Part shown: positions 2,898-26,198 of the stretch, piece by piece
Numbering within the stretch: position 1 is the first letter of the stretch
Layout: every line of letters starts with the position of its first letter
Notes under the pieces: model-generated
Told to the model about the DNA's origin: nothing
The model's input: only the letters and a program-made list of their open reading frames with translations
Database searches by the model: none
IMG/VR virus record: IMGVR_UViG_3300042691_052129
Location: 1 to 29,325 of that record
Source: a virus
DNA length: 29,325 nucleotides
Strand: one strand, 5' to 3'
Made by a program: the position numbers and the translations under genes

Positions 2898-5062
2898 TTA
2901 TAGTCTACTATTTTTCTAAAATCTATAATTAGAGAAGTATATGTTAATTTATTTTTTTTATTTCTTCTATCATATCTTGAGCTTCTTTTAATAAAACCAT
3001 CTTCTATGTCCCATTCTTGAAAATGAAACTGACCATTTTCATCAAAATACTCCAATAAGTCACCCTCAAATCCATTTTCTTTAAATAGCTCTAGTAAAGT
3101 TACATAATTGTATAAGAATTTATGATCATGAGCAGAAGCTCCAGATCCCTCAACATCCACGCTTTTTATATAATCAGCACTTGGATGGTAACCATCTGGC
3201 ACAGCTATTCTAATAGATCCATCTTTATGCAGAAATTTTTTAAAATTATTTATAGTATTGATTCTATCTTTATCGTTCAAATGCTCAAAAACATGTTCTG
3301 CTAATATTCTATTAATAGAATTATATTCTATATTATTTTTAATCCATGAATCTTCATTTGTTATATCTAATATGTCTTTATTTGTATTTATCCAATTTCT
3401 ATACTGTTTTCTTCCACATCCAACATGTAATTTTATCGCATTATTTTCTGGCTGTTTTATTTTAGCTATAGAATCTTTTATTTGTTCTGCTGTTCTTTTA
3501 TTATATAAACCACACCGTCTTTTAAAATCATACCTAAGAGTTTTTTTATTAAGGGCCATAGCAATATACCATAAATATGTATCTTGACTAGGTATGGGCA
3601 ATCTTTCTCCTGCTAATTCAGCTGCTTGTTTTGTAAATTCAGTTGAGTGTAATTGCACAAAACTATTGGTTCTGTGATGATAATATCTATTTTTTATAAT
3701 TTTTGAACTATCTATTATGTATTGAAAATTGAGATTTTTATTTATAGACCATTCATTAAGAGTATTTATCCAGGACCACGGTTTTGTATAGTTCCATTTA
3801 TGGCCAACAATGTCAAATCCAGAAATATTTTTATTTAAAATTTCTCTACTGTCTACGGCATACGTATCACAATCTAACTTTAACCAATATTTCGTATTTA
3901 CATTTTTTGCTGAACCAAATACAAAAGCACTCAACATTTTTTCTCTTTGGGAATCAGCATTATTCATTTCCCAAGGGATAAGTGTAATATTTTTATAGTT
4001 TTTTATAAAATCTAGGCGTTCATCATTTTCTTTAAATCCATTAATAAATATTATTATTGGAAATTTTAATATATTTTTATATTTAATCCATGTTGGAAAA
4101 GTTAGTTTTAAGCATTCTACATATCTTGTATCACAAGCTGTTACAATTGTAGTATTTGTATAGTTAGGGTCATCGTTTTCATTATAATTATATTCTCTAG
4201 TATTATTTATAATTTTATTACATTCATTGACATATGACTCCATACCATATCTATTTTGTAAAAATTTATTAAGATTATAATCATGTTTTATATTGTCTAT
4301 AATATTATCTATATTATTTTTTTCATTATGTAATAAATTAATAAATTCTTTTATCCATAACTCCGCCAAACTAAATTTTCTACAATGTTTTCGTCCATGA
4401 TAATGTATAATCCTTTTGTCTTCTTGATTTTGGCCAAATTTAACACTAGTATTAAATTTTGAATCTAATATTTTAATATTATACTTAGGTAAAAGAATTT
4501 GACAAGCAATTTCATCTGGTATGTATAGTCTATTTGATTGTCCTATTCTTGCTATTTCTAGCCAATCTTTAAATATTCTAGAATTTTTCATAAAAGCATA
4601 AATTCCAGTATTAATCGCTGGACCATAAGATATTGCTTTAGATATGACTTCGTTGCCTAAATATTTTTCATAATTTTTAATACGACGAGATATGGTTTTT
4701 CCACTAGACAACCAGTTACTAAATTGAGTTACGCATAAATCATAATTTTGTATATCAATAAATAACTCATCAATATTACCAATAATTAATGTATCAGCGT
4801 CTATAAAAATTGTTTCATCATAAGGAGATAATTGAGACACAATAATTTTTCTTACATAAGTATTATCTAATTTTTCAGAATCTAAGTTTATAATAGAAAT
4901 TTTATATTTTTCTAAAAACCAATTTATCTGATTATAGTTATAATTTTCCATTAAAATAGTGATATTTCCATTATAAAATTTTCTTAAGCTTTGAATAGAT
5001 ACCATAAGTCGTATAACACAACCCTGTCCTCTATTGTAATAAATAATGCCTTGAGTAGTCAT
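2894..5062 (-). CDS. Three-domain fusion: GT8-like transferase, second GT-A-like domain, SAM methyltransferase
   Basis: 722 residues in three parts. Residues 1-~265 match family 8-type glycosyltransferases (glycogenin/LgtC fold): IFIDADTLIIGNIDELF carries the metal-binding DxD at 88-90, followed by NTGIYAF (151-157) and a late HYHGRKH (220-226). Residues ~303-515 form a second GT-A-like unit, with TTIVTACDTRY (304-314), KLDCDTYA containing a DxD (395-402) and SQDTYLWY (492-499). Residues ~541-722 are a class I SAM methyltransferase of the COG4627-like type: KLHVGCG (544-550), AEHVFEHL (588-595) and VPDGYHP (621-627). The combination suggests sequential addition and methylation of a sugar on one acceptor. 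The ATG overlaps the upstream cupin stop as ATGA, so the two are translationally coupled. The acceptor and the sugars are unknown. Confidence 0.8.
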   Translation of the reverse strand: MTTQGIIYYNRGQGCVIRLMVSIQSLRKFYNGNITILMENYNYNQINWFLEKYKISIINLDSEKLDNTYVRKIIVSQLSPYDETIFIDADTLIIGNIDELFIDIQNYDLCVTQFSNWLSSGKTISRRIKNYEKYLGNEVISKAISYGPAINTGIYAFMKNSRIFKDWLEIARIGQSNRLYIPDEIACQILLPKYNIKILDSKFNTSVKFGQNQEDKRIIHYHGRKHCRKFSLAELWIKEFINLLHNEKNNIDNIIDNIKHDYNLNKFLQNRYGMESYVNECNKIINNTREYNYNENDDPNYTNTTIVTACDTRYVECLKLTFPTWIKYKNILKFPIIIFINGFKENDERLDFIKNYKNITLIPWEMNNADSQREKMLSAFVFGSAKNVNTKYWLKLDCDTYAVDSREILNKNISGFDIVGHKWNYTKPWSWINTLNEWSINKNLNFQYIIDSSKIIKNRYYHHRTNSFVQLHSTEFTKQAAELAGERLPIPSQDTYLWYIAMALNKKTLRYDFKRRCGLYNKRTAEQIKDSIAKIKQPENNAIKLHVGCGRKQYRNWINTNKDILDITNEDSWIKNNIEYNSINRILAEHVFEHLNDKDRINTINNFKKFLHKDGSIRIAVPDGYHPSADYIKSVDVEGSGASAHDHKFLYNYVTLLELFKENGFEGDLLEYFDENGQFHFQEWDIEDGFIKRSSRYDRRNKKNKLTYTSLIIDFRKIVDYN

Positions 5063-5403
5063 ATTATACTCCCAGTATCTTCTCTTACTATATCATGCTC
5101 GTCTATAGACACATAATATATTTCTATGGCTGAAGTATTTTCTTTGGCTGTAAATCTATGATAGACGCCTGACTTAATTTCTGTCATTTGTTCATTTTCT
5201 AAAATCGTAATATCAACCAAGCCATTAGATTTCCATTCTTCTATCTCAAGTCTACCGTTTTGCACAAAAAAAATATTGTTTTTATGTTTGTGCATATGCT
5301 TTGAGCATCTGCCTCCCTTTTTGATATAAATTTGATTAATTTGTATATTATCATTCTTAAAAAGAAGCATATTTTCGCCCCAAATCTTACCCTCTTTAAT
5401 CAT
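5059..5403 (-). CDS. Small cupin protein (ManC/phosphomannose isomerase type II cupin-like)
   Basis: 114 residues, a single cupin barrel. It begins with K-x-WGEN, as in the C-terminal cupin of bifunctional mannose-6-phosphate isomerase/GDP-mannose pyrophosphorylase and COG0662 proteins. Cupin motif 1 appears as GGRCSKHMHKHKNNIFFVQNG, with the HxH metal ligands present but the usual Glu replaced by Asn. Motif 2 appears as IKSGVYHRFTAKEN, with the late His. It probably acts on, or binds, a sugar phosphate or nucleotide sugar. It overlaps both neighbours by four bases (ATGA), placing it in the sugar-modification operon. With the Glu ligand missing, it may be a binding or structural cupin rather than an isomerase. 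Confidence 0.7.
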   Translation of the reverse strand: MIKEGKIWGENMLLFKNDNIQINQIYIKKGGRCSKHMHKHKNNIFFVQNGRLEIEEWKSNGLVDITILENEQMTEIKSGVYHRFTAKENTSAIEIYYVSIDEHDIVREDTGSII

Positions 5404-6314
5404 CTTCCCCTCTGTGCTAATCTAGTTGCCTTTGCATTTTCTTTATTAATTTTTTGTTTAATTTTAGCTTCTCTGTCGTATAGTCCTTCTGCTTTTTCAT
5501 TTTTAATATCAACACCAAATTTAGAATAAATACTTAAGATGGCTGTGTCAAAATCTATAAATTCAAAACTTTTAAGTTCAGATTGTTTATTACAATTAAA
5601 AATCTTTAGACCGGCTTGTGAGAATATTGGGTTTAACTGATTGAATCTATCTATCATTCTTTGATATGTTTTAGTATTATTTTTAATAGCTTGTTTGGAT
5701 CTATCTTGTTTGAAATGATACTTATGATTTTCATCCATTTTAAAATCACACCCCAATAGATAAATTTCTCTAATACCAAGATAATATAAGAGCTTAATAC
5801 CTATTAACATTACAGACCTACCGCCGCCATAATCTTTATGATCACCCCAATTAAAGGTCGGTTCTGTTAAAAATGTACTAGCATTAAATCTATCGTTTCT
5901 TTCTATACCAAAAACATTTGCACATGTAGATACCGGAACATTAGTTTCTTGCCATGAAATATTATCAAAAATATTTTTATTCATATTTTCATATGGAATA
6001 AATTTTTGTATTTTTGGATCTAGCCAAATTGATTTCATAAATCTGCTAGGATCATCAACAGATGTCCATAGATTTGGCCTAAAGCTTTTAACAGAATTGT
6101 TAACTCCCATAGTTAAAAAACCAGGATATTTTAAAGCGTCTTTATACCAAAACTCTTTGCTTCCAAGATTAATTTTTTCTTTAGAATCTAATATTTGTTT
6201 AAAACTCGGTCCGCTTAATATTAAAAAAGCAGACGAATTTTTATAAATATTTTTTAAACTTATCCTGTTGTTATCTGTTGTAAAAATAGATATTTCTTTA
6301 TGAAGTTGATTCAT
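5400..6314 (-). CDS. DUF115/Maf- or GT42-like Rossmann-fold protein
   Basis: 304 residues. The N-terminal AFLILSGPS (29-37), TMGVNNS (68-74) and WTSVDDP (83-89) segments, and the central YGGGRSVML (162-170) with EIYLLGCDFKMD (183-194) and H200, match the pattern of DUF115/MptE-like and sialyltransferase family GT42 proteins: a GPS nucleotide loop, a conserved Asn after the second strand and a late G-x-D. Members include Maf proteins that modify flagellin Ser/Thr with nonulosonic acids and phage-encoded relatives of unknown role. The C-terminal ~40 residues are Lys/Glu-rich and look helical. The stop overlaps the cupin ATG (ATGA). An acceptor-modifying role is inferred from the family and the neighbours; substrate and true family assignment need a profile search. 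Confidence 0.55.
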   Translation of the reverse strand: MNQLHKEISIFTTDNNRISLKNIYKNSSAFLILSGPSFKQILDSKEKINLGSKEFWYKDALKYPGFLTMGVNNSVKSFRPNLWTSVDDPSRFMKSIWLDPKIQKFIPYENMNKNIFDNISWQETNVPVSTCANVFGIERNDRFNASTFLTEPTFNWGDHKDYGGGRSVMLIGIKLLYYLGIREIYLLGCDFKMDENHKYHFKQDRSKQAIKNNTKTYQRMIDRFNQLNPIFSQAGLKIFNCNKQSELKSFEFIDFDTAILSIYSKFGVDIKNEKAEGLYDREAKIKQKINKENAKATRLAQRGR

Positions 6315-6325
6315 AGAACTAGAAA

Positions 6326-6655
6326 CTATTTATCTTTAGAATCTTTGCTCCATTTATGCCAACCTTTATTAGGCAGATAATTTCCATCATCATCTTTACG
6401 TTTTGGAAATAATGTACCGCCTTTTTTGTGTTGTCCAAAAGCTAATATAGCCCCACAATCAGAACATCGTAATTCGTAATAGTCATTACCATCAACATTA
6501 CGTACCACAAAACGCAGATTTGTATTATTACAAAGGCCGCATTTTTCTTCAGCAAAAATTTCCTGAATTAGTGCTAATTCCTTAAAAATTTCTTTTTGGC
6601 CAGCTCCTTCAAGCTCAAACTCTAATTTATCGCCAACTTTATATTTAACTTTCAT
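6326..6655 (-). CDS. Small zinc-ribbon protein next to the annealing protein
   Basis: 109 residues. An N-terminal segment of about 35 residues (KVKYKVGDKLEFELEGAG...) is followed by a zinc ribbon with paired cysteines C39/C42 and C64/C67, then a basic, Trp/Lys/Asp-rich tail (KGWHKWSKDSKDK). It may bind single-stranded DNA or assist the annealing protein encoded immediately upstream, which ends five bases before this ATG. No catalytic residues are visible. The function is inferred from position only. Confidence 0.55.
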   Translation of the reverse strand: MKVKYKVGDKLEFELEGAGQKEIFKELALIQEIFAEEKCGLCNNTNLRFVVRNVDGNDYYELRCSDCGAILAFGQHKKGGTLFPKRKDDDGNYLPNKGWHKWSKDSKDK

Positions 6656-6660
6656 AATTA

Positions 6661-7383
6661 TTATTTCCAGTTTGAATCATATCCTAGAATATCATCAGAT
6701 ATTGACGAGATATTTTGCTGATATGATGATAGTGTTTTAATAAGATTTACAGCATCGCTGTGCTCTATATTATAGATATTTTTAGTATCATGTCCAATTT
6801 TTTCTATCATCTTAAGAGCGTTTATATCGAGTCTCTTACATAAGACATCTATAAAATTAAGTTGATTATTGCTAATCTTATTAATATTGTGAGAATCAGG
6901 ATTATCTTCAATATCCTTAGCGATTTCTTCTGCTGCTACTACTTTTCTTAATCTTAATGCTCTTCTTAATGCTCTTCCTTCTGCTCTTGTTTCAGCAACC
7001 GCAACAGGATGGTTTCTATAGATTTTGTCACAATTTCCATAATACACATCTGCTGCTCCATCTGTGGTTATCGTATTTAAATGATCCCTATCACCATCCA
7101 TATCTTTTAATACAAAGGTTATGGAATGAACCACGGTGGCTCTTTTTTCATTATTTGGTTCAGGAGATTGAACCACTTGGGATGTTGAGCTTATTACTCT
7201 ACAATCTAATGCTAATTCAAATATTCTTCTTAATCCATCTGTTGTAGGATTACCACTTATTTTTTCATCTTCGGACAATAAGCTTAATACATAATCAGTC
7301 CATTCTATCGAATGAATAGATGGCTTAATATTGTCTTTTTCAACAGATTTTTCTTCAAGATTTGTATTTTTTTTAGCTGGCAT
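6661..7383 (-). CDS. Rad52/ERF-like single-strand annealing protein
   Basis: 240 residues. The stretch at 127-146 (AVAETRAEGRALRRALRLRK) is the hallmark helix of phage Rad52/ERF/Sak-type annealing proteins, where it follows a beta-rich core; that core is seen here as HSITFVLKDMDGD...ITTDGAADVYY (86-115). The C-terminal part (NKISNNQLNFIDVLCKRLDI) resembles the small helical domain appended to many such proteins. It should promote RecA-independent annealing of complementary single strands at replication or recombination ends. The start ATG follows an AGGGGA Shine-Dalgarno and directly abuts the upstream nuclease stop. It sits with a zinc ribbon and a Vsr-like nuclease as a small recombination cassette. 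The subfamily cannot be fixed by eye. Confidence 0.65.
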   Translation of the reverse strand: MPAKKNTNLEEKSVEKDNIKPSIHSIEWTDYVLSLLSEDEKISGNPTTDGLRRIFELALDCRVISSTSQVVQSPEPNNEKRATVVHSITFVLKDMDGDRDHLNTITTDGAADVYYGNCDKIYRNHPVAVAETRAEGRALRRALRLRKVVAAEEIAKDIEDNPDSHNINKISNNQLNFIDVLCKRLDINALKMIEKIGHDTKNIYNIEHSDAVNLIKTLSSYQQNISSISDDILGYDSNWK

Positions 7384-12860: not shown

Positions 12861-13229
12861 TTAAAAAGAAACAACTTCTTCTGAGACAGTATCTGTCTTT
12901 TTAAGTTTTGTAATTTTTGCAAAATTATTAACTCTAATTTTGAGACTTGAGCGTTTAACGCCATCCTTTTCCCAAGTATCGTTTCTAGCAGTACCTTCGA
13001 TCATAACCAAATCTCCTTTCTTAAAAGATGATGCAATAACTTCCGCACCACTATCCCATGCTTCGCATGGCAAGTATGAAACCACCTTATCTTTGGTTCC
13101 ATTCGCTCTTGTAAAATCCTTAGATACAGCAACAGTAAATGAAACTACTGATGTTTGTTTATCTCCAGTAGTTACTGTTCTTAGTTCTGGATCTCTTGTT
13201 AAGTTACCACGCAAAAGTACAATATTCAT
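12861..13229 (-). CDS. ssb: Single-stranded DNA-binding protein
   Basis: 122 residues from the ATG at 13229; an in-frame TTG one codon upstream is less likely because AGGAG lies six bases before the ATG. It has the OB fold of bacterial-type SSB: MNIVLLRGNLTRDPELRT, then VVSFTVAVSKDF and VSYLPCEAWDSGAEVIASSF, then KGDLVMIEGTARNDTWEKDG and SLKIRVNNFAKI. The C-terminal end, SEEVVSF, mimics the acidic tip ending in Phe that recruits partner proteins in cellular SSBs. It coats single strands during replication and recombination. It has its own promoter and terminator, unlike all neighbouring genes, suggesting separate and high expression. Confidence 0.95.
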   Translation of the reverse strand: MNIVLLRGNLTRDPELRTVTTGDKQTSVVSFTVAVSKDFTRANGTKDKVVSYLPCEAWDSGAEVIASSFKKGDLVMIEGTARNDTWEKDGVKRSSLKIRVNNFAKITKLKKTDTVSEEVVSF

Positions 13230-13235
13230 CAAAGT

Positions 13236-13299: not shown

Positions 13300-14895
13300 C
13301 TATATGACAAAACATTTTTTTACAATAACACTATTGTCTTTTTTTGCTTTTTGACCATTAAACATCAACACTCGACCATCTACTAATAGGTCTTTGTAAT
13401 TCATAAATTCATCTGGAAAGATAACGCAATCTGTTGATCCATAAGAATCTGACACTTTTATAAAACACATTTCCTGACCGGGATTTTTCCCTTTTTTAGT
13501 TTTGATAATATTAATGCTATCAATTTCTGCTATTAGAAAAAACTGTTTTTCTGATGGAAAAGTTTTTATATTTTTACAGTCTGTATTTGCATAAGAAGAG
13601 TCATAAGAATCAGTTTTAGCACACGTGATTGACGCTCCTAAAAATTCTTTCTCGTTGTCCGCTATCCATTCTGGTTCATCTATCATAGAATAAGAAGGGT
13701 CTGCAACTTGATTCAATATACTAATTACTTTCGTTTGTCTATTTTTCATAATTTTGCCATCACCAACCAGTTGTCTTAATGTTTCTAAAACTGTTTTATT
13801 ATTGATACAAAATAATAAGCACTGTTCTATTTCTTTTTTTGATAATTGTGTTATTAAATTAAACTCATACAGCATTTGATTTCTTGATACTTTTAGATAG
13901 TCTAAAGCCCCACTACATATCAATGCTTTTGCGGATGAGCTGTTGATGTTCAATAATATAGAGAATAGTGTTTGTGGCCAATAAAGTTTATTTAAATCTA
14001 TATCTTTGATTAATTCATATAATTTATCATATACAGAATCTCCAAGGCTCTTGATATTCGTGAGACCAAAATATATTTTTTTATTATTGATAATAAATTC
14101 TTTATTTTTTAATCTCAGGTCTGGACCAAATATATCTATATCCATCTCTCTAGCATTATTAATTAATTCTAACATTTCTTCTTGAGGATCTATTTTATCC
14201 TTAGCTAATTTTAAATAGGACAAGAAAAATATTAAAGGAAAATGAGCTTTTGCATGGGCGCTGATGTAGGCATTTATAGCATAGCTCACAGCATGGCTTT
14301 TATTAAAAGAATATCTTTGGCTTTTTTCTATCCAGCTAAAAATTTGCTCTGTTTGATCTTCAGCAACTAAACCCTTAACTTTAGATCCTTCCAAGAACTT
14401 TAATTTAATTTTTGCCATTTCTTCTGGCTTTTTCTTACCAATAGCCTTTCTTAGCATATCTGCTTCTTGCAAATTAAAACCAGCTATGTCTTTAGCTATC
14501 TCCATAGCTTGTTCTTGATAGACCATCTCCCCATAAGTATTTTTTAATATAGGCTCCAATGCTTCATGAAAATAGTCAATAGACTCTAATCCATTTTTTT
14601 TATCTATAAAATGATTACTAACACTTTTTCCATCCCTTATCGCTTCCAAACATCCTGGTCTCATTATGCTAATTAAAGCCGATAATTGCTCTATATTTTC
14701 TGGTTTAAGTTTTTTTGCCATACTTTGGCCAAGCCTAGACTCTAATTGAAATACTCCTTTTGTATTTCCTTCGGAAATTAAACTCCAGGTCTTATTACAT
14801 TCAAAATCTATAGATGACGGATCATATTCTATAGTTTTATTAGATCCAAATACCGAACAATTAAACTGACAACCGCAAGCAAAATTAAGATTCAT
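13300..14895 (-). CDS. dnaE: DNA polymerase III alpha, C-terminal half (fingers, HhH, OB)
   Basis: 531 residues. It begins where the N-terminal half stops in intact DnaE. Characteristic motifs are GNTKGVFQLES (43-53), ISIMRPG (75-81), GEMVYQEQAMEIAKDIAGF (122-140), ADMLRKAIGKKKPEEM (145-160) and FNKSHAVSYAINAY (197-210), all of the fingers domain. FGLTNIKSLG is the helix-hairpin-helix entry, and an OB-fold segment near residues 445-500 (LIAEIDSINIIKTKKGK) follows. The catalytic palm Asp residues are in the other half. The first ~35 residues are extra and Cys-rich (C7, C9, C13, C33), possibly a small metal site or an interface to the N-half. The two halves sum to 1158 residues, close to a full-length DnaE. 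It overlaps the exonuclease gene by 11 bases. No intein motifs are seen. Confidence 0.92.
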   Translation of the reverse strand: MNLNFACGCQFNCSVFGSNKTIEYDPSSIDFECNKTWSLISEGNTKGVFQLESRLGQSMAKKLKPENIEQLSALISIMRPGCLEAIRDGKSVSNHFIDKKNGLESIDYFHEALEPILKNTYGEMVYQEQAMEIAKDIAGFNLQEADMLRKAIGKKKPEEMAKIKLKFLEGSKVKGLVAEDQTEQIFSWIEKSQRYSFNKSHAVSYAINAYISAHAKAHFPLIFFLSYLKLAKDKIDPQEEMLELINNAREMDIDIFGPDLRLKNKEFIINNKKIYFGLTNIKSLGDSVYDKLYELIKDIDLNKLYWPQTLFSILLNINSSSAKALICSGALDYLKVSRNQMLYEFNLITQLSKKEIEQCLLFCINNKTVLETLRQLVGDGKIMKNRQTKVISILNQVADPSYSMIDEPEWIADNEKEFLGASITCAKTDSYDSSYANTDCKNIKTFPSEKQFFLIAEIDSINIIKTKKGKNPGQEMCFIKVSDSYGSTDCVIFPDEFMNYKDLLVDGRVLMFNGQKAKKDNSVIVKKCFVI

Positions 14896-15580
14896 TAATA
14901 AAAGATCCTTTAAAATTTACTTTTTCTGCCAATCTTCTATGTAGTCTTAAAAATCTAACTAAGATTTTAGCGCAATCCTGTACATCTTTTAGAGCATCAT
15001 GCGCTCCTTCTTTTGAAATGCCTAAATAATCTCTTACTGTATCCAATGAATAGCTTTTTAAATCAGAACTTTCGAACCAATAAAAAACTAAATTCATGAT
15101 ATCTAAGACATCTCTAGGATAAAATAATGATGAAATATTTTCTTTTGCTTCAATATTTTTATATTTATGAGACAATCTATTAATAATTTTTAAATCAAAT
15201 CTATGGATATTATATCCAGCAGCTATTGGCGCAGAAAATACACTCTTTTTCTTTCTATTCCCGCAATGATATTTATCAAGATAAGAAATAAATGAATTCC
15301 ATGCTATTTGTTGCGAAGGATATTGTCTCCATTGTTTGTATATATCCTCTTTAGAACACCCTTTAACTCTAGCATGAAAATCCATTATATCAGTATCATA
15401 TATGTACTCGGAGTTAGTTTCCATAACTTCTGGTTTACAGAAAACATTAAACTCTGAATCTTTTATAATCTCTAATCTTATTGGATCTATCATTACCGCA
15501 GATAACTGTACTGGACTACAAATCTCTGGATCAGATCCATCTGTCTCAAAATCAAAAACGCATATTTTTTTAGTTAACAT
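14885..15580 (-). CDS. DnaQ-like 3'-5' exonuclease (DEDDh)
   Basis: 231 residues from the ATG at 15580 (an in-frame TTG one codon upstream is less likely, because this ATG overlaps the stop of the upstream small gene by one base). ExoI is CVFDFETDGS (D10, E12), ExoII is AGYNIHRFD (N124, D129) and ExoIII is GAHDALKDV (H194, D199), giving a full DEDDh catalytic set. It should act as the proofreading exonuclease of the split polymerase, matching the epsilon subunit of Pol III. The gene sits between the two polymerase halves, the strongest context evidence for joint function. An insertion of ~35 residues around 70-112 lies between ExoI and ExoII. Confidence 0.9.
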   Translation of the reverse strand: MLTKKICVFDFETDGSDPEICSPVQLSAVMIDPIRLEIIKDSEFNVFCKPEVMETNSEYIYDTDIMDFHARVKGCSKEDIYKQWRQYPSQQIAWNSFISYLDKYHCGNRKKKSVFSAPIAAGYNIHRFDLKIINRLSHKYKNIEAKENISSLFYPRDVLDIMNLVFYWFESSDLKSYSLDTVRDYLGISKEGAHDALKDVQDCAKILVRFLRLHRRLAEKVNFKGSFINES

Positions 15581-15759
15581 CAATTACTTTCAATCTTTTC
15601 AACTTCATCTAATGGTTTTAGGACGATCTTTTCATTGGTCTGAACAAGTTCACAGTTATATTTTACTTTACAACAACTTGCTTTGACTTCTTGAACCTTT
15701 AAATACTCTTGATTATTAAATTTAAATTTTTCACCAACTGCTAATTCATGAAATTTCAT
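15580..15759 (-). CDS. Small conserved-looking protein of the polymerase operon
   Basis: 59 residues: starts MKFHELAVGEKFKFNNQEYL, has a Cys-Cys pair at 29-30 and Cys36, and ends KPLDEVEKIESN. The ATG at 15759 has a strong AGGAG six bases upstream. The gene overlaps the end of the polymerase N-half by 14 bases and its TGA overlaps the exonuclease ATG by one base, so coding signals are good at both ends. The 'F.elavGekF.f.n.eY.Kv' start resembles small SH3-like phage proteins. Function unknown. Confidence 0.72.
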   Translation of the reverse strand: MKFHELAVGEKFKFNNQEYLKVQEVKASCCKVKYNCELVQTNEKIVLKPLDEVEKIESN

Positions 15760-17629
15760 TATTAACTCCTTTTCTAAGATATTCTGAGATATACATAATT
15801 TTATCTAACATAGCGACGCCTAAAATATCAAATTTTACTACGCCTATACTTTCTAAATCTTCCATTTCCATACCAGCAATTTTAGTTTTTGTTTTTGGGT
15901 CATATATCATTGGACATATTTGAGAAAGATCTGAATCGGCAATAACTACTCCTGCGGCATGTTTTGACTGATTAACTTTCGTTCCCTCAAGTCTTATAGC
16001 CTGTTCAAATCTTTTGGCAAGTGGTCCTTGAAATTCATTATTTTCATCAATAAAGCACCATTCCTTAAGTTTTTCTGATTCGTTTTCTAAGGCCCATCTT
16101 ATAATAGAGGCTTCTCCAGTTTCATCTTTCATTTCCTGTAATTCATCAGCAATTTTTGCTTCATCTGGAATATTTTTAGTAATCTTATTCATTTCTTCAA
16201 AATTAATATTGCCATAAACTCTCAAAACATCTTTTATTGCTCCACGACCTTTAATAGTATTAAAAGTAACCATTTGAGAAACTTGATTTGCTCCATATTT
16301 TTCTTTTATATAAGAAATAATTTCTTCTCTTTTTTCTATCGGAACATCGACATCAATATCTGGCATACTAACTCTATCTTTTGTATTACGTCCAGAATTA
16401 TAAAATCTATCAAACATTAGGTTATATTTAATAGGATCTATTCCTGTTATACCTATTAGGTAAGAGACAAGACAACCTGCCGCACTACCCCTTCCTGGTC
16501 CTGGAAGCCACCTATTTTGTCTAACATAATCAACTATATTTTGCACTATTAAAAAGTAGCTTGATAATCCAGCTCCTTGCAAGATATCTAATTCATATTT
16601 AATCCTATCTAAATATACTTGTTGATTATCTTTATCAATCACATTAGCTATTTTTTCTTTCCATCCGTTTCTACACAGTTGTCTTAAAAATTCATCTGGG
16701 TTTGGACTACAATCAAATGGGGGTAGTCGTGGTCTGCTAGTTATATCGTATTGTTCACACATATCAGATACTAAAATAGTATTATTAATTTCTTCTTCTG
16801 TATGCAAAGACCTAATTTCTTCTTGTGATAAAATATGAAAATTATCAGATAGAAAAAAACATCCCAATGGAACGTCTTGGTTGTTATTAATTTTTTTACT
16901 AATTTCTGGTAGTGTTGTTTTTAAATTATTACAAAGAAGAATTCTTTGATCAGAAGCGTCTTCTTTTCTGACATAATGAGCGTCTGGAGTAGCAACTAAT
17001 TTTGTCTGTGTTAAAATACCGAGTTCTCTAATACAATCTGTTAAAGGTTTTTGTATTGGAGTATTTTCACTATCCATTAATTGAGCCTCTAAGAAAAAAT
17101 TATCCTTACCAAAAATATCTTTTAGTTGCCAAATAGTATTTTGTCCAATATTTTTCCAGTCGCTAACAATTTGATTATTATCTACTAATTTATCGGCCAA
17201 TAACGAACCAAGATGACCACATATGCCTATCAAATTGCCGTCACAGAACCTTCTCAGGTTGTTTAAATCGATTCTAGGCTTGTGATAATAAAAGTCCGGC
17301 CTGTTGGACTCTGAAACTAAACCAATCAGTTTCTTCCATCCTTCTAGGTTTTTGGCTAAAATTAAAAAATGACTTAATTCTTTGTTGTCTTTTGTTTGAT
17401 TAGTAACATCAGAATCGCAAACATATATTTCACAGCCTAATATTGGTTTGATTCCTGCTTTAGTCATTTCTTTATGAAATTTGATTGATCCAGCTATTGT
17501 TCCGTGATCGGTTAATGCGCACGCAGTTGCGCCAATTTCTAAACATCTTGAAGCTATTTGAGATGGTTTGGATAATCCATCTAATAAGCTATACATAGAG
17601 TGACAGTGTAGAGGATTATAGTTTTTCAT
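15746..17629 (-). CDS. dnaE: DNA polymerase III alpha, N-terminal half (PHP and palm)
   Basis: 627 residues. The PHP domain opens with NPLHCHSMYSLLDGL (H8, H10) and ALTDHGTIAG (D41, H42), keeping metal ligands of active PHP domains. The palm includes GPGRGSAAGCLVSYL (377-391), SMPDIDVDVP (421-430; D424 and D426 equal the E. coli catalytic D401/D403) and GVVKFDILG (596-604; D601 equals D555). It ends about 26 residues later, without the fingers. All three catalytic Asp are therefore in this half, while the fingers and OB fold are in the separate 13300-14895 gene. The ATG overlaps the upstream nuclease stop (ATGA). The residue numbering of the family is from memory. Confidence 0.94.
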   Translation of the reverse strand: MKNYNPLHCHSMYSLLDGLSKPSQIASRCLEIGATACALTDHGTIAGSIKFHKEMTKAGIKPILGCEIYVCDSDVTNQTKDNKELSHFLILAKNLEGWKKLIGLVSESNRPDFYYHKPRIDLNNLRRFCDGNLIGICGHLGSLLADKLVDNNQIVSDWKNIGQNTIWQLKDIFGKDNFFLEAQLMDSENTPIQKPLTDCIRELGILTQTKLVATPDAHYVRKEDASDQRILLCNNLKTTLPEISKKINNNQDVPLGCFFLSDNFHILSQEEIRSLHTEEEINNTILVSDMCEQYDITSRPRLPPFDCSPNPDEFLRQLCRNGWKEKIANVIDKDNQQVYLDRIKYELDILQGAGLSSYFLIVQNIVDYVRQNRWLPGPGRGSAAGCLVSYLIGITGIDPIKYNLMFDRFYNSGRNTKDRVSMPDIDVDVPIEKREEIISYIKEKYGANQVSQMVTFNTIKGRGAIKDVLRVYGNINFEEMNKITKNIPDEAKIADELQEMKDETGEASIIRWALENESEKLKEWCFIDENNEFQGPLAKRFEQAIRLEGTKVNQSKHAAGVVIADSDLSQICPMIYDPKTKTKIAGMEMEDLESIGVVKFDILGVAMLDKIMYISEYLRKGVNNEIS

Positions 17630-18669
17630 TCGGCGCTTCCTGGTGCTTTATATTTTCCAAAAGAATGATTAGGGTGTTTATATAAATTGGTGGTTTCATC
17701 AATTCCATAAAGTTCTATATCATGTTTGATTTGTTCACATTTTGTCATAAAACTATCTTTGCGAGACACCTGACCATCACGATACTCCATAGTCGGCAAA
17801 ATGCAAGTATTCTCAAAAGTTGTTTTGCCAAAATGACACAGCTTATTACACATCCATGTTTTTGATAATTTAGGTTTTTTGGTTCTTTTGATAATTTCGA
17901 ATTTATTCTTTAACATAGATTCTGTTTCTGTCATATCATTTTTATCAAATAATACCGAAAATGGACCACCATCATTAATAAAATATATAGTAAAAATTAC
18001 GTGATCAAATTCAGGAAAGATATGACTAATAGCATAATGGTATATCATTAACTGAGGATCTTTTTGTAATTTTTCGTGTGTTTTTTCTTGACCGGTTGCC
18101 CAGTCTAATCTTTTGCCTGTTTTCCAGTCTATGACTTCTAATGTTTTGTCATCTACTTTTGTTATTAAATCTATTGTGCCTTTTAAAGCTAAATTTCCTT
18201 TCATGTTTCCTTCAGGAGTGTTAAAATCATATTCTGCCCATTTTTTATTAATAGTAAAATCAAAATGTTGTTCTGGACTTAATATTTGTCGATTTCTTGG
18301 ATCAAACATACCATTATTAAATTCAATAGCTTTATATGACCATTCTTTACAATCTTTTAGATCTTTGGGGGTCCATTTATGATGATCAAATTTGGCGGAA
18401 TAATATTCATAAACTTTATTTATGATTGAATCCAATGAATAGTTATTAACATTAATTTCTCCAACAACATCATCAATAAAAGTTGAATTACCATCTTGTT
18501 GTTGTTGTTTAATAACTGCTAGTATCTCTAATATCTTATGAACGATGGTTCCCTTATCTGCTTTTTGTCCAGAAGGACCTCTCCATCCCAATACGTATTC
18601 GAGATAGTATTGTTGTTCACACATATTGTGCGTATTAAAAGAACTGCTTCTAAAATATGTTATTATAAT
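17626..18669 (-). CDS. Cas4/RecB-like PD-(D/E)XK nuclease with Cys cluster, probable non-ATG start
   Basis: 333 residues from the ATG at 18624, or ~348 from an upstream ATT/ATA. The nuclease core is GTIVHKILE (His), LALKGTIDLI (Asp), LEVIDWKTGKR (D-x-K) and the QLMIYHYA helix. One Cys in MCEQQYYLEYVLG and three in WMCNKLCHFGKTTFENTC fit the four Cys ligands of the Cas4/AddB iron-sulfur cluster, though the spacing (CX3CX10C) is unusual. Upstream of the ATG the frame stays open and encodes ITYFRSSSFNTHN, which is the normal family N-terminus (FR-S-S...C..Y). Hence the true start is likely ATT at 18669 or a nearby ATC/ATA, with AAGGA about 8-9 bases before it. It may resect or trim DNA ends in replication-linked recombination. 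Confidence 0.87.
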   Translation of the reverse strand: MIITYFRSSSFNTHNMCEQQYYLEYVLGWRGPSGQKADKGTIVHKILEILAVIKQQQQDGNSTFIDDVVGEINVNNYSLDSIINKVYEYYSAKFDHHKWTPKDLKDCKEWSYKAIEFNNGMFDPRNRQILSPEQHFDFTINKKWAEYDFNTPEGNMKGNLALKGTIDLITKVDDKTLEVIDWKTGKRLDWATGQEKTHEKLQKDPQLMIYHYAISHIFPEFDHVIFTIYFINDGGPFSVLFDKNDMTETESMLKNKFEIIKRTKKPKLSKTWMCNKLCHFGKTTFENTCILPTMEYRDGQVSRKDSFMTKCEQIKHDIELYGIDETTNLYKHPNHSFGKYKAPGSAE

Positions 18670-25241: not shown

Positions 25242-25620
25242 TTTGTGTTTTCCTTTTTTGTTTTTTATTAGTATTTTTAGACCATTTTGGCTTTGGAGGC
25301 TTTTTAATTCTGTTCATTCCGGTAGGTAATTCTTTAGTGCCATGTTCAAATTTATAGGAATTATGTTTTTGGTATAAATGTATTTTTTCATCTTCGCTCA
25401 TTCTATCAGAATTTCTTTTAGCTAAATCTCCTATCGTGTTTAATTCTGAATCAGACTTTCTTATAGATGTACTTTGACTAAGAACATCATCCACATATCT
25501 TCTATGGGTATCTGATGATTTACACTTTAAACATTTGGGTTGATTTATATAATCTTTAATATAAAAAAATAATTCAAAGTTATATTGACAGTTGTTACAA
25601 GAATATGAATATGTTGGCAT
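25234..25620 (-). CDS. FmdB-type zinc-ribbon protein
   Basis: 128 residues from the ATG at 25620; earlier in-frame residues are not needed because this ATG overlaps the HNH stop (TAATG). The N-terminus MPTYSYSCNNC...PKCLKC has the paired cysteines C8/C11 and C30/C33 and the 'MPtYeY.C..C' signature of FmdB-like regulatory proteins. A low-complexity Lys/Pro/Asn-rich tail follows. It probably binds nucleic acid or protein; the role in phages is unknown. Confidence 0.75.
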   Translation of the reverse strand: MPTYSYSCNNCQYNFELFFYIKDYINQPKCLKCKSSDTHRRYVDDVLSQSTSIRKSDSELNTIGDLAKRNSDRMSEDEKIHLYQKHNSYKFEHGTKELPTGMNRIKKPPKPKWSKNTNKKQKRKTQNG

Positions 25621-26198
25621 TATAGATAAGAATCCGGGAGATATAGTATCCATTCAGGTGGAATATCTAGTTTTATCTTAGACAAGTGGTTGATCACAGG
25701 CAAGTATTTTAGATTTCTACATGGTTTTATTGGTAAATTTATTAGCGGCATATTAGCTTCTTTTGGTGTTCGATTTCCCTTTTTTCTATTACAATCTGCA
25801 CAAGCGGTCACTATATTAGTCCAACAAGTTGGTGATAGTTTTTTATTTGTCCATTTAGATTTAGGTATAACATGATCATATGTTAAATTATCAATATTTT
25901 GTTTTTTATTACAATATTGACATGTAAAATTATCTCTAGTAAAAATATTTTTTCTAGAAAATGTTACTGTATGATTATTTAATTTGAAAAATCTATTAGT
26001 TTTAGCTACTGCTGGTATAGGATATTTTTTATTTACTCCATTAATATGATCATTTTTATAGAAATCTATAATTTCAATTGAATATTTTGGATTGTTATTA
26101 AATCTCATAGACCATATTATTGCCTTTTGCCAAGAAATAATTCCTAATGGAGTATAATCTGCATTAAGCAATAAGCATTGTTTATGGTTTTGTTGCAT
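25620..26198 (-). CDS. HNH endonuclease
   Basis: 192 residues. It starts with CLLLNADYTPLGIISWQKAI, the lead-in of a widespread HNH family. The core is SRKNIFTRDNFTCQYCNKKQ with C93/C96, LTYDHVIPKS with D108/H109 (catalytic His), and WTNIVTACADCNRKKGNRT with N128, C133/C136 and N137. These are the beta-beta-alpha-metal residues of an active nuclease. It may be a homing-type or a genome-processing HNH. Its 5' end overlaps phoH by 17 bases and its stop overlaps the next ATG. Confidence 0.87.
   Translation of the reverse strand: MQQNHKQCLLLNADYTPLGIISWQKAIIWSMRFNNNPKYSIEIIDFYKNDHINGVNKKYPIPAVAKTNRFFKLNNHTVTFSRKNIFTRDNFTCQYCNKKQNIDNLTYDHVIPKSKWTNKKLSPTCWTNIVTACADCNRKKGNRTPKEANMPLINLPIKPCRNLKYLPVINHLSKIKLDIPPEWILYLPDSYL

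What the first reader, a model, noticed from the sequence alone, without database searches (positions are those of the whole stretch)
13300..17629. DNA polymerase III alpha split between palm and fingers, with an exonuclease gene in the gap
The N-half has all three catalytic Asp (D424, D426, D601) and stops ~26 residues later. The C-half starts just before GVFQLES and carries fingers, HhH and OB parts. Together they equal a normal DnaE in length. A 59-residue gene and the DnaQ-like exonuclease lie between them. The cut is not at the FNKSH site used by the cyanobacterial split DnaE intein, and no intein motifs are visible, so the halves probably assemble non-covalently.
Basis: partly seen in the sequence, partly recalled or inferred. 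Interest (0 to 1): 0.62.

Follow-up and report, generated by a model that had tools for sequence, protein, structure and literature searches.

The report
Two-piece phage replicase with embedded proofreader
A large family of uncultured aquatic phages makes its only detectable DNA-copying enzyme as two separate proteins, cut between the catalytic palm and the fingers, with the proofreading enzyme's gene fixed between the two halves; the two halves probably snap together rather than being glued into one chain.

Summary
The window is a 29 kb fragment of an uncultured phage. Its DnaE-type Pol III alpha is encoded as an N-half (627 aa, PHP+palm, all three catalytic Asp) and a C-half (531 aa, fingers/HhH/OB), with a 59-aa gene and an active-site-intact DEDDh exonuclease between them. 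About 150 IMG/VR contigs in two deep clades (about 50% identity) have the same cut and keep the exonuclease in the gap; none has an intact gene. The ~80 nearest cellular DnaE1 genes are single ORFs. In 20 long contigs (80-233 kb) there is one N-half, one C-half and no PolA or PolB match. The cut falls in a naturally variable surface loop: the halves align to Taq alpha 6-636 and 639-953. No intein, intron or bypass signal lies at the break, while true split and contiguous inteins occur elsewhere in the same genes in relatives. All parts are under strong purifying selection. A cultured phage, Rossellomorea phiT1, is independently cut at the same loop. Best reading: a three-piece Pol III core that assembles without covalent rejoining (inferred, not shown). 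Split phage polymerases, including a minimal split Pol III alpha, were already known, so this is a new variant of a known kind.

The parts
15746..17629 (-). DnaE N-half (627 aa): PHP + palm/thumb, catalytic D424, D426, D601
17081..17611 (-). PHP domain (N-half 7-183); HHDHEHHDH metal motif complete (H8 H10 D17 H42 E67 H87 H139 D216 H218; the last two lie just past the Pfam boundary)
   Evidence: motif definition PMC12926913
15818..16690 (-). Palm/thumb domain PF07733
15580..15759 (-). 59-aa gene (conserved CC motif, function unknown), overlaps the N-half end by 14 nt; usually present in relatives, absent in some
14885..15580 (-). DnaQ-like 3'-5' exonuclease (231 aa), DEDDh invariant in 76/76; lies between the halves wherever the contig spans both
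13300..14895 (-). DnaE C-half (531 aa): fingers, HhH, OB; overlaps the exonuclease end by 11 nt
14797..14895 (-). C-half N-terminal lead (residues 1-33): CGC beta hairpin plus invariant C33, specific to the split family
14377..14844 (-). Fingers domain PF17657
13873..14139 (-). HhH domain PF14579
13339..13494 (-). OB fold PF01336
17626..18624 (-). PD-(D/E)XK nuclease directly upstream, conserved neighbour in nearly all relatives
12861..13232 (-). SSB directly downstream, conserved neighbour in nearly all relatives

Best explanation
This is a genuine, long-established two-chain Pol III alpha (family C, DnaE type). The operon PD-(D/E)XK - N-half - small gene - exonuclease - C-half - SSB yields three separately translated polypeptides: PHP+palm, a DnaQ/epsilon-like proofreader, and fingers+HhH+OB. 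The two alpha halves associate without covalent joining across the native palm/fingers contact surface and form the active site together. The exonuclease, made between them by coupled translation, probably docks as epsilon does, giving a three-piece phage Pol III core that is the phage's replicative polymerase. Shown here: genes, domains, conservation, catalytic residues, absence of joining signals, selection, absence of a detected alternative polymerase. Inferred: physical assembly, exonuclease docking, replicative role.
For: About 150 contigs share the cut, none intact; a further C-half scan gave 79/79 split with the exonuclease between. Halves tile Taq alpha 6-636 / 639-953. AF2 models confident: pLDDT 90.7 (pTM 0.88) and 90.6 (pTM 0.81); best PDB folds are Pol III alpha. 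D424/D426/D601 58/58, DEDDh 76/76. dN/dS about 0.03-0.13 where synonymous sites are not saturated. Exonuclease-to-C-half spacing -23 to +15 nt, mostly -4/-8/-11, indicating coupled translation. SD-like sites ahead of C-halves 26/58 versus 11% background. Twenty 80-233 kb contigs: one N-half, one C-half, no PolA/PolB match, no intact DnaE. Independent cut at the same loop in cultured phage phiT1.
Against: No co-fold or biochemistry; structure prediction takes one chain only. Long contigs are not certified complete, so another polymerase could be missed, and divergent PolA/PolB could escape Pfam. Some relatives lack the 59-aa gene or the CGC hairpin, so neither can be essential for assembly.
Confidence: 0.86

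Rival explanations
1. The halves are joined after translation by protein trans-splicing (hidden split intein) or before translation by RNA splicing that removes the 59-aa and exonuclease genes.
For: Relatives do carry inteins and an intron-like insertion in the same genes: a split intein in the palm of L028/L031/L068/L074, a contiguous HNH intein in the C-half of L055/L056, a LAGLIDADG-bearing insertion in L331.
Against: N-halves end about 12-26 residues after the third Asp helix with no IntN, and C-halves begin with a short hairpin or directly with DnaE sequence, no IntC. The exonuclease gene runs into the C-half start, leaving no intron end; no Rfam intron in the window (but Rfam also missed the L331 insertion, so this is weak). 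All elements found sit inside conserved motifs and leave the two sides exactly in register, unlike this break.
Confidence: 0.04
2. The split gene is decaying or one half has another job, and the real polymerase is the host's or another phage enzyme.
For: The contigs are fragments, so another polymerase could lie outside them.
Against: Catalytic residues invariant across two deep clades, strong purifying selection on both halves, placement among helicase, primase, SSB and recombinase genes, no PolA/PolB match in 20 long contigs.
Confidence: 0.06
3. Assembly or sequencing error.
For: Single-contig metagenomic source of the window.
Against: Same gene order in about 150 contigs from many separate metagenomes.
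Confidence: 0.01

Closest known systems
Bacterial DnaE1 / Pol III alpha (E. coli, Thermus, Clostridia)
   Same: Domain order, catalytic Asp triad, fold, total length; closest solved sequences and folds.
   Different: Single chain in all ~80 nearest cellular homologues checked; no CGC hairpin, no Cys at the positions of N C572 and C C33.
Minimal split Pol III alpha of group 2.2 jumbo phages (Iyer et al. 2021, PMC7824862)
   Same: A phage Pol III alpha made as two proteins proposed to reconstitute an enzyme.
   Different: That one is a minimal catalytic module without the other domains, its genes lie far apart, and it co-occurs with a family B polymerase; here the enzyme is full length, the halves share an operon with the proofreader between, and no PolB was found.
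Rossellomorea phage phiT1 gp20-gp19-gp18
   Same: DnaE cut at the same palm/fingers loop with a small (49-aa) gene between.
   Different: Outside the split clade in the tree, no CGC hairpin, no exonuclease in the gap: a separate event.
Cyanobacterial split DnaE intein; 'fractured genes' of Dassa et al. 2009 (cited in PMC3653736)
   Same: DnaE or another replication gene in two pieces, sometimes with another gene in the gap.
   Different: Those are rejoined by trans-splicing inteins; none is present at this break. True examples occur in relatives' palm (L028).
Actinophage DnaE split between PHP and palm (Leopard, Terapin, Weiss13, Tedro)
   Same: Phage DnaE in two neighbouring genes, often with a small ORF between.
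   Different: Cut at the PHP/palm boundary.
T4-like split gp43A/gp43B; split archaeal PolB (own knowledge, not tested here)
   Same: Replicative polymerase in two non-covalent chains.
   Different: Family B polymerases, unrelated fold.

Membership tests
Family C DNA polymerase, DnaE type | PHP + palm + fingers domains with three catalytic Asp | tested here: met
Family C DNA polymerase, DnaE type | HhH and OB domains after the fingers | tested here: met
   (OB score 27.2 against cut-off 27)
Family C DNA polymerase, DnaE type | Single polypeptide | tested here: not met
Family C DNA polymerase, DnaE type | Beta-clamp and tau binding | not tested
   The profile match to E. coli alpha breaks between 901 and 950 and ends at 1055; motifs and partners were not examined
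DnaQ / epsilon proofreader | DEDDh active site | tested here: met
   76/76 at all five positions
DnaQ / epsilon proofreader | Binds alpha | not testable with these tools
   no multi-chain prediction
Active PHP proofreading domain | HHDHEH[C/H]DH motif (PMC12926913) | tested here: met
   complete in the window; 51-56 of 58 relatives per position
Split-intein DnaE / fractured gene | IntN at the end of the N part and IntC at the start of the C part | tested here: not met
   positive examples for contrast
Minimal split Pol III alpha (Iyer 2021) | Lacks PHP and other accessory domains; distant genes; PolB present | tested here: not met

The most novel reading that the evidence does not exclude
The split created a dedicated junction: the CGC hairpin and C33 of the C-half together with C572 of the N-half (all absent from intact DnaE) form a metal-bound staple across the two chains, and assembly of N-half, exonuclease and C-half is a controlled step that switches on phage replication with proofreading built in.
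Probability: 0.13. Interest if true: 0.68.

Novelty: new variant of a known kind. Interest (0 to 1): 0.52.

Why it matters
It shows that the bond between palm and fingers, unbroken in every cellular DnaE1 checked here, can be dispensed with in a full-length Pol III alpha that is apparently a phage's only polymerase, and that this has happened at least twice at the same loop. It gives a natural two-chain replicase for asking how the fingers move relative to the palm, whether assembly is regulated, and how a proofreader is recruited. It also warns annotators that half-length DnaE proteins in aquatic viromes are intact subunits, not fragments.

Tried and rejected
Assembly error: rejected by about 150 contigs. 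Intein at the break: no intein parts. Intron or bypass removing the gap genes: overlapping genes leave no room, no Rfam hit. phiT1 N-part scanned in viral contigs: no relatives. T4-like gp23 test: the control did not ring, uninformative. Bacteroides phage DAC19, one of the only three cultured phages (near-identical) hit by the exonuclease, encodes a terminase and a ligase beside it, not a split DnaE. Jayan's broken DnaE lies inside the palm and looks like an insertion, not this split. DNA search for cultured close relatives: none. Sampling limit: scans keep the 80 best loci, so an intact relative at 38-48% identity could have been missed.

Full report
What is there. The window is a 29,325-bp virus record. 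On the minus strand, in transcription order, are a PD-(D/E)XK nuclease (17626-18624), the DnaE N-half (15746-17629, 627 aa), a 59-aa gene (15580-15759), a DnaQ-like exonuclease (14885-15580/15583), the DnaE C-half (13300-14895, 531 aa) and SSB (12861-13232). Nearby are DnaB, a Toprim primase, a RecA/UvsX recombinase, PhoH, a dNMP-kinase-like protein and a ribonucleotide reductase: a replication cluster. The N-half holds PHP and palm with D424, D426 and D601; the C-half holds fingers, HhH and OB.

Is it conserved? Homologue scans of IMG/VR gave about 150 different contigs carrying both halves (102 in the first set, 50 more); every one is split at the same place. Wherever the contig spans both halves the exonuclease lies between them (102/102 in the first set). 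A separate scan with distant C-halves gave 79/79 split with the exonuclease between, partly the same contigs. The family has two deep parts about 50% identical in the N-half. Distance from N-half stop to C-half start is typically 850-880 nt in the window's group. The small gene is replaceable: it is missing in L087/L098, and L025 has a SET-domain gene and L173 a uracil-DNA glycosylase before the exonuclease, while L147 has a cytidylyltransferase-like gene after it. The exonuclease is the fixed element. A scan of one genome per bacterial/archaeal species found only intact DnaE1 at 37% identity or less. In a tree the split family is one clade with full SH-aLRT support on a long branch (quick method, long-branch warnings).

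Is it the phage's polymerase? In 20 contigs of 80-233 kb there is exactly one N-half (itself interrupted in one) and one C-half and no PolB or PolA match (both controls rang). The contigs may be incomplete. Catalytic residues are invariant: D424/D426/D601 in 58/58, exonuclease DEDDh in 76/76. The PHP metal motif HHDHEHHDH, the published signature of an active PHP proofreader (PMC12926913), is complete in the window, so two proofreading sites may coexist. Nei-Gojobori dN/dS is about 0.03-0.13 for N, C and exonuclease where synonymous change is not saturated. AlphaFold2 gives pLDDT 90.7/pTM 0.88 (N) and 90.6/0.81 (C); best PDB folds are Pol III alpha.

Where is the cut? Profile alignment to Thermus alpha ends at 636 for the N-half and begins at 639 for the C-half. 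It falls after the short helix that follows the third catalytic Asp strand, in a loop whose length varies in intact DnaE. Most C-halves add a 20-25 residue beta hairpin with a CGC motif there (49/56); some lineages lack it and start directly in DnaE sequence, so it is not essential. Two further Cys are invariant in the split family and absent from intact DnaE: C572 in the N-half and C33 in the C-half. A metal-bound junction is possible but untested.

How could the chain be made whole? Inteins: none at the break. The same genes in relatives show what inteins look like: L028, L031, L068 and L074 carry a split intein exactly at PGRG|SAAG in the palm, with a separate ORF (I read it as Vsr-like by eye) between the intein halves, and L055/L056 carry a contiguous HNH intein at RPG|C in the C-half. 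L331 has an insertion with a LAGLIDADG-looking ORF inside the palm. These sit in conserved motifs and leave the flanks exactly in register. At the palm/fingers break, by contrast, genes overlap (exonuclease stop to C-half start is -4, -8 or -11 nt in 65 of 100 loci), there is a family-specific hairpin, and 26/58 C-half starts have SD-like sites against 11% background. So the C-half is independently translated and coupled to the exonuclease. The most likely mechanism is non-covalent assembly of the two halves over the native palm/fingers surface, with the exonuclease as third subunit. This last step is inference.

Known precedents. Iyer et al. 2021 (PMC7824862) described a minimal split Pol III alpha in group 2.2 jumbo phages with distant genes and a PolB alongside. 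Actinophages Leopard, Terapin, Weiss13 and Tedro have DnaE cut between PHP and palm. Cellulophaga phage phiST is cut within the palm and Bacillus phage G has its third catalytic Asp on the C-terminal piece. Rossellomorea phage phiT1 is cut at exactly the present loop, with a 49-aa gene between, and branches outside the family. It is a cultured, independent case. Full-text searches found no description of the present arrangement, but that library is partial.

Verdict. Observation confirmed; interpretation supported. New variant of a known kind: full-length, operon-encoded, palm/fingers-split Pol III alpha with a fixed embedded proofreader, widespread in uncultured phages.

Noticed in passing
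L028 8004-11064, L068 around 4065-7127 (also L031, L074, L312): Genuine split intein inserted at PGRG|SAAG in the palm of the N-half, with a separate ORF (Vsr-like by eye) between the intein halves: in these phages DnaE is encoded in three pieces, only one break being healed by trans-splicing.
   Followed up: partly
L055 4145-6481, L056 7707-10043: Contiguous intein with an HNH-like segment in the C-half at RPG|C (fingers).
   Followed up: partly
L331, L337, L349 near 3397: Insertion in the palm just before PDIDID carrying a LAGLIDADG-looking ORF, probably an intron; no Rfam match.
   Followed up: partly
L282 2489-5771 (Rossellomorea phage phiT1 gp20-gp18): Cultured phage with an independent DnaE split at the same palm/fingers loop and a 49-aa gene between.
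   Followed up: yes
L277/L279/L280 (Bacillus phage G, JN638751 about 240460-250008): Phage G DnaE appears to be in several pieces; gp339 begins just before the third catalytic Asp. The record annotates it only as 'DNA pol III-like'.
   Followed up: partly
L271, L272, L273, L274: Actinophage DnaE split between PHP and palm, three of the four with a small ORF between.
   Followed up: partly
L186 8731-12223 (same contig as L305); L320: About 3.5 kb extra between exonuclease and C-half; in L186 it includes a DUF1559/N_methyl protein (a family I associate with Planctomycetota, a possible host hint), an FkbM methyltransferase and ThyX.
   Followed up: partly
L025 5045-5356; L173 7908-8456; L147 8547-8972: Gap between the DnaE halves carries varying cargo: SET domain, uracil-DNA glycosylase, cytidylyltransferase-like.
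   Followed up: partly
L053 2130-2813; L028 7243-7962; window 25620-26198: Free-standing HNH-type homing-endonuclease-like genes next to replication genes; the L053 one sits between N-half and the small gene.
   Followed up: no
window 15580-15759: 59-aa protein family with a conserved CC motif and an SD-like site in 44/44 relatives checked; weak match to phrog_19240, no match in cultured phages.
   Followed up: partly
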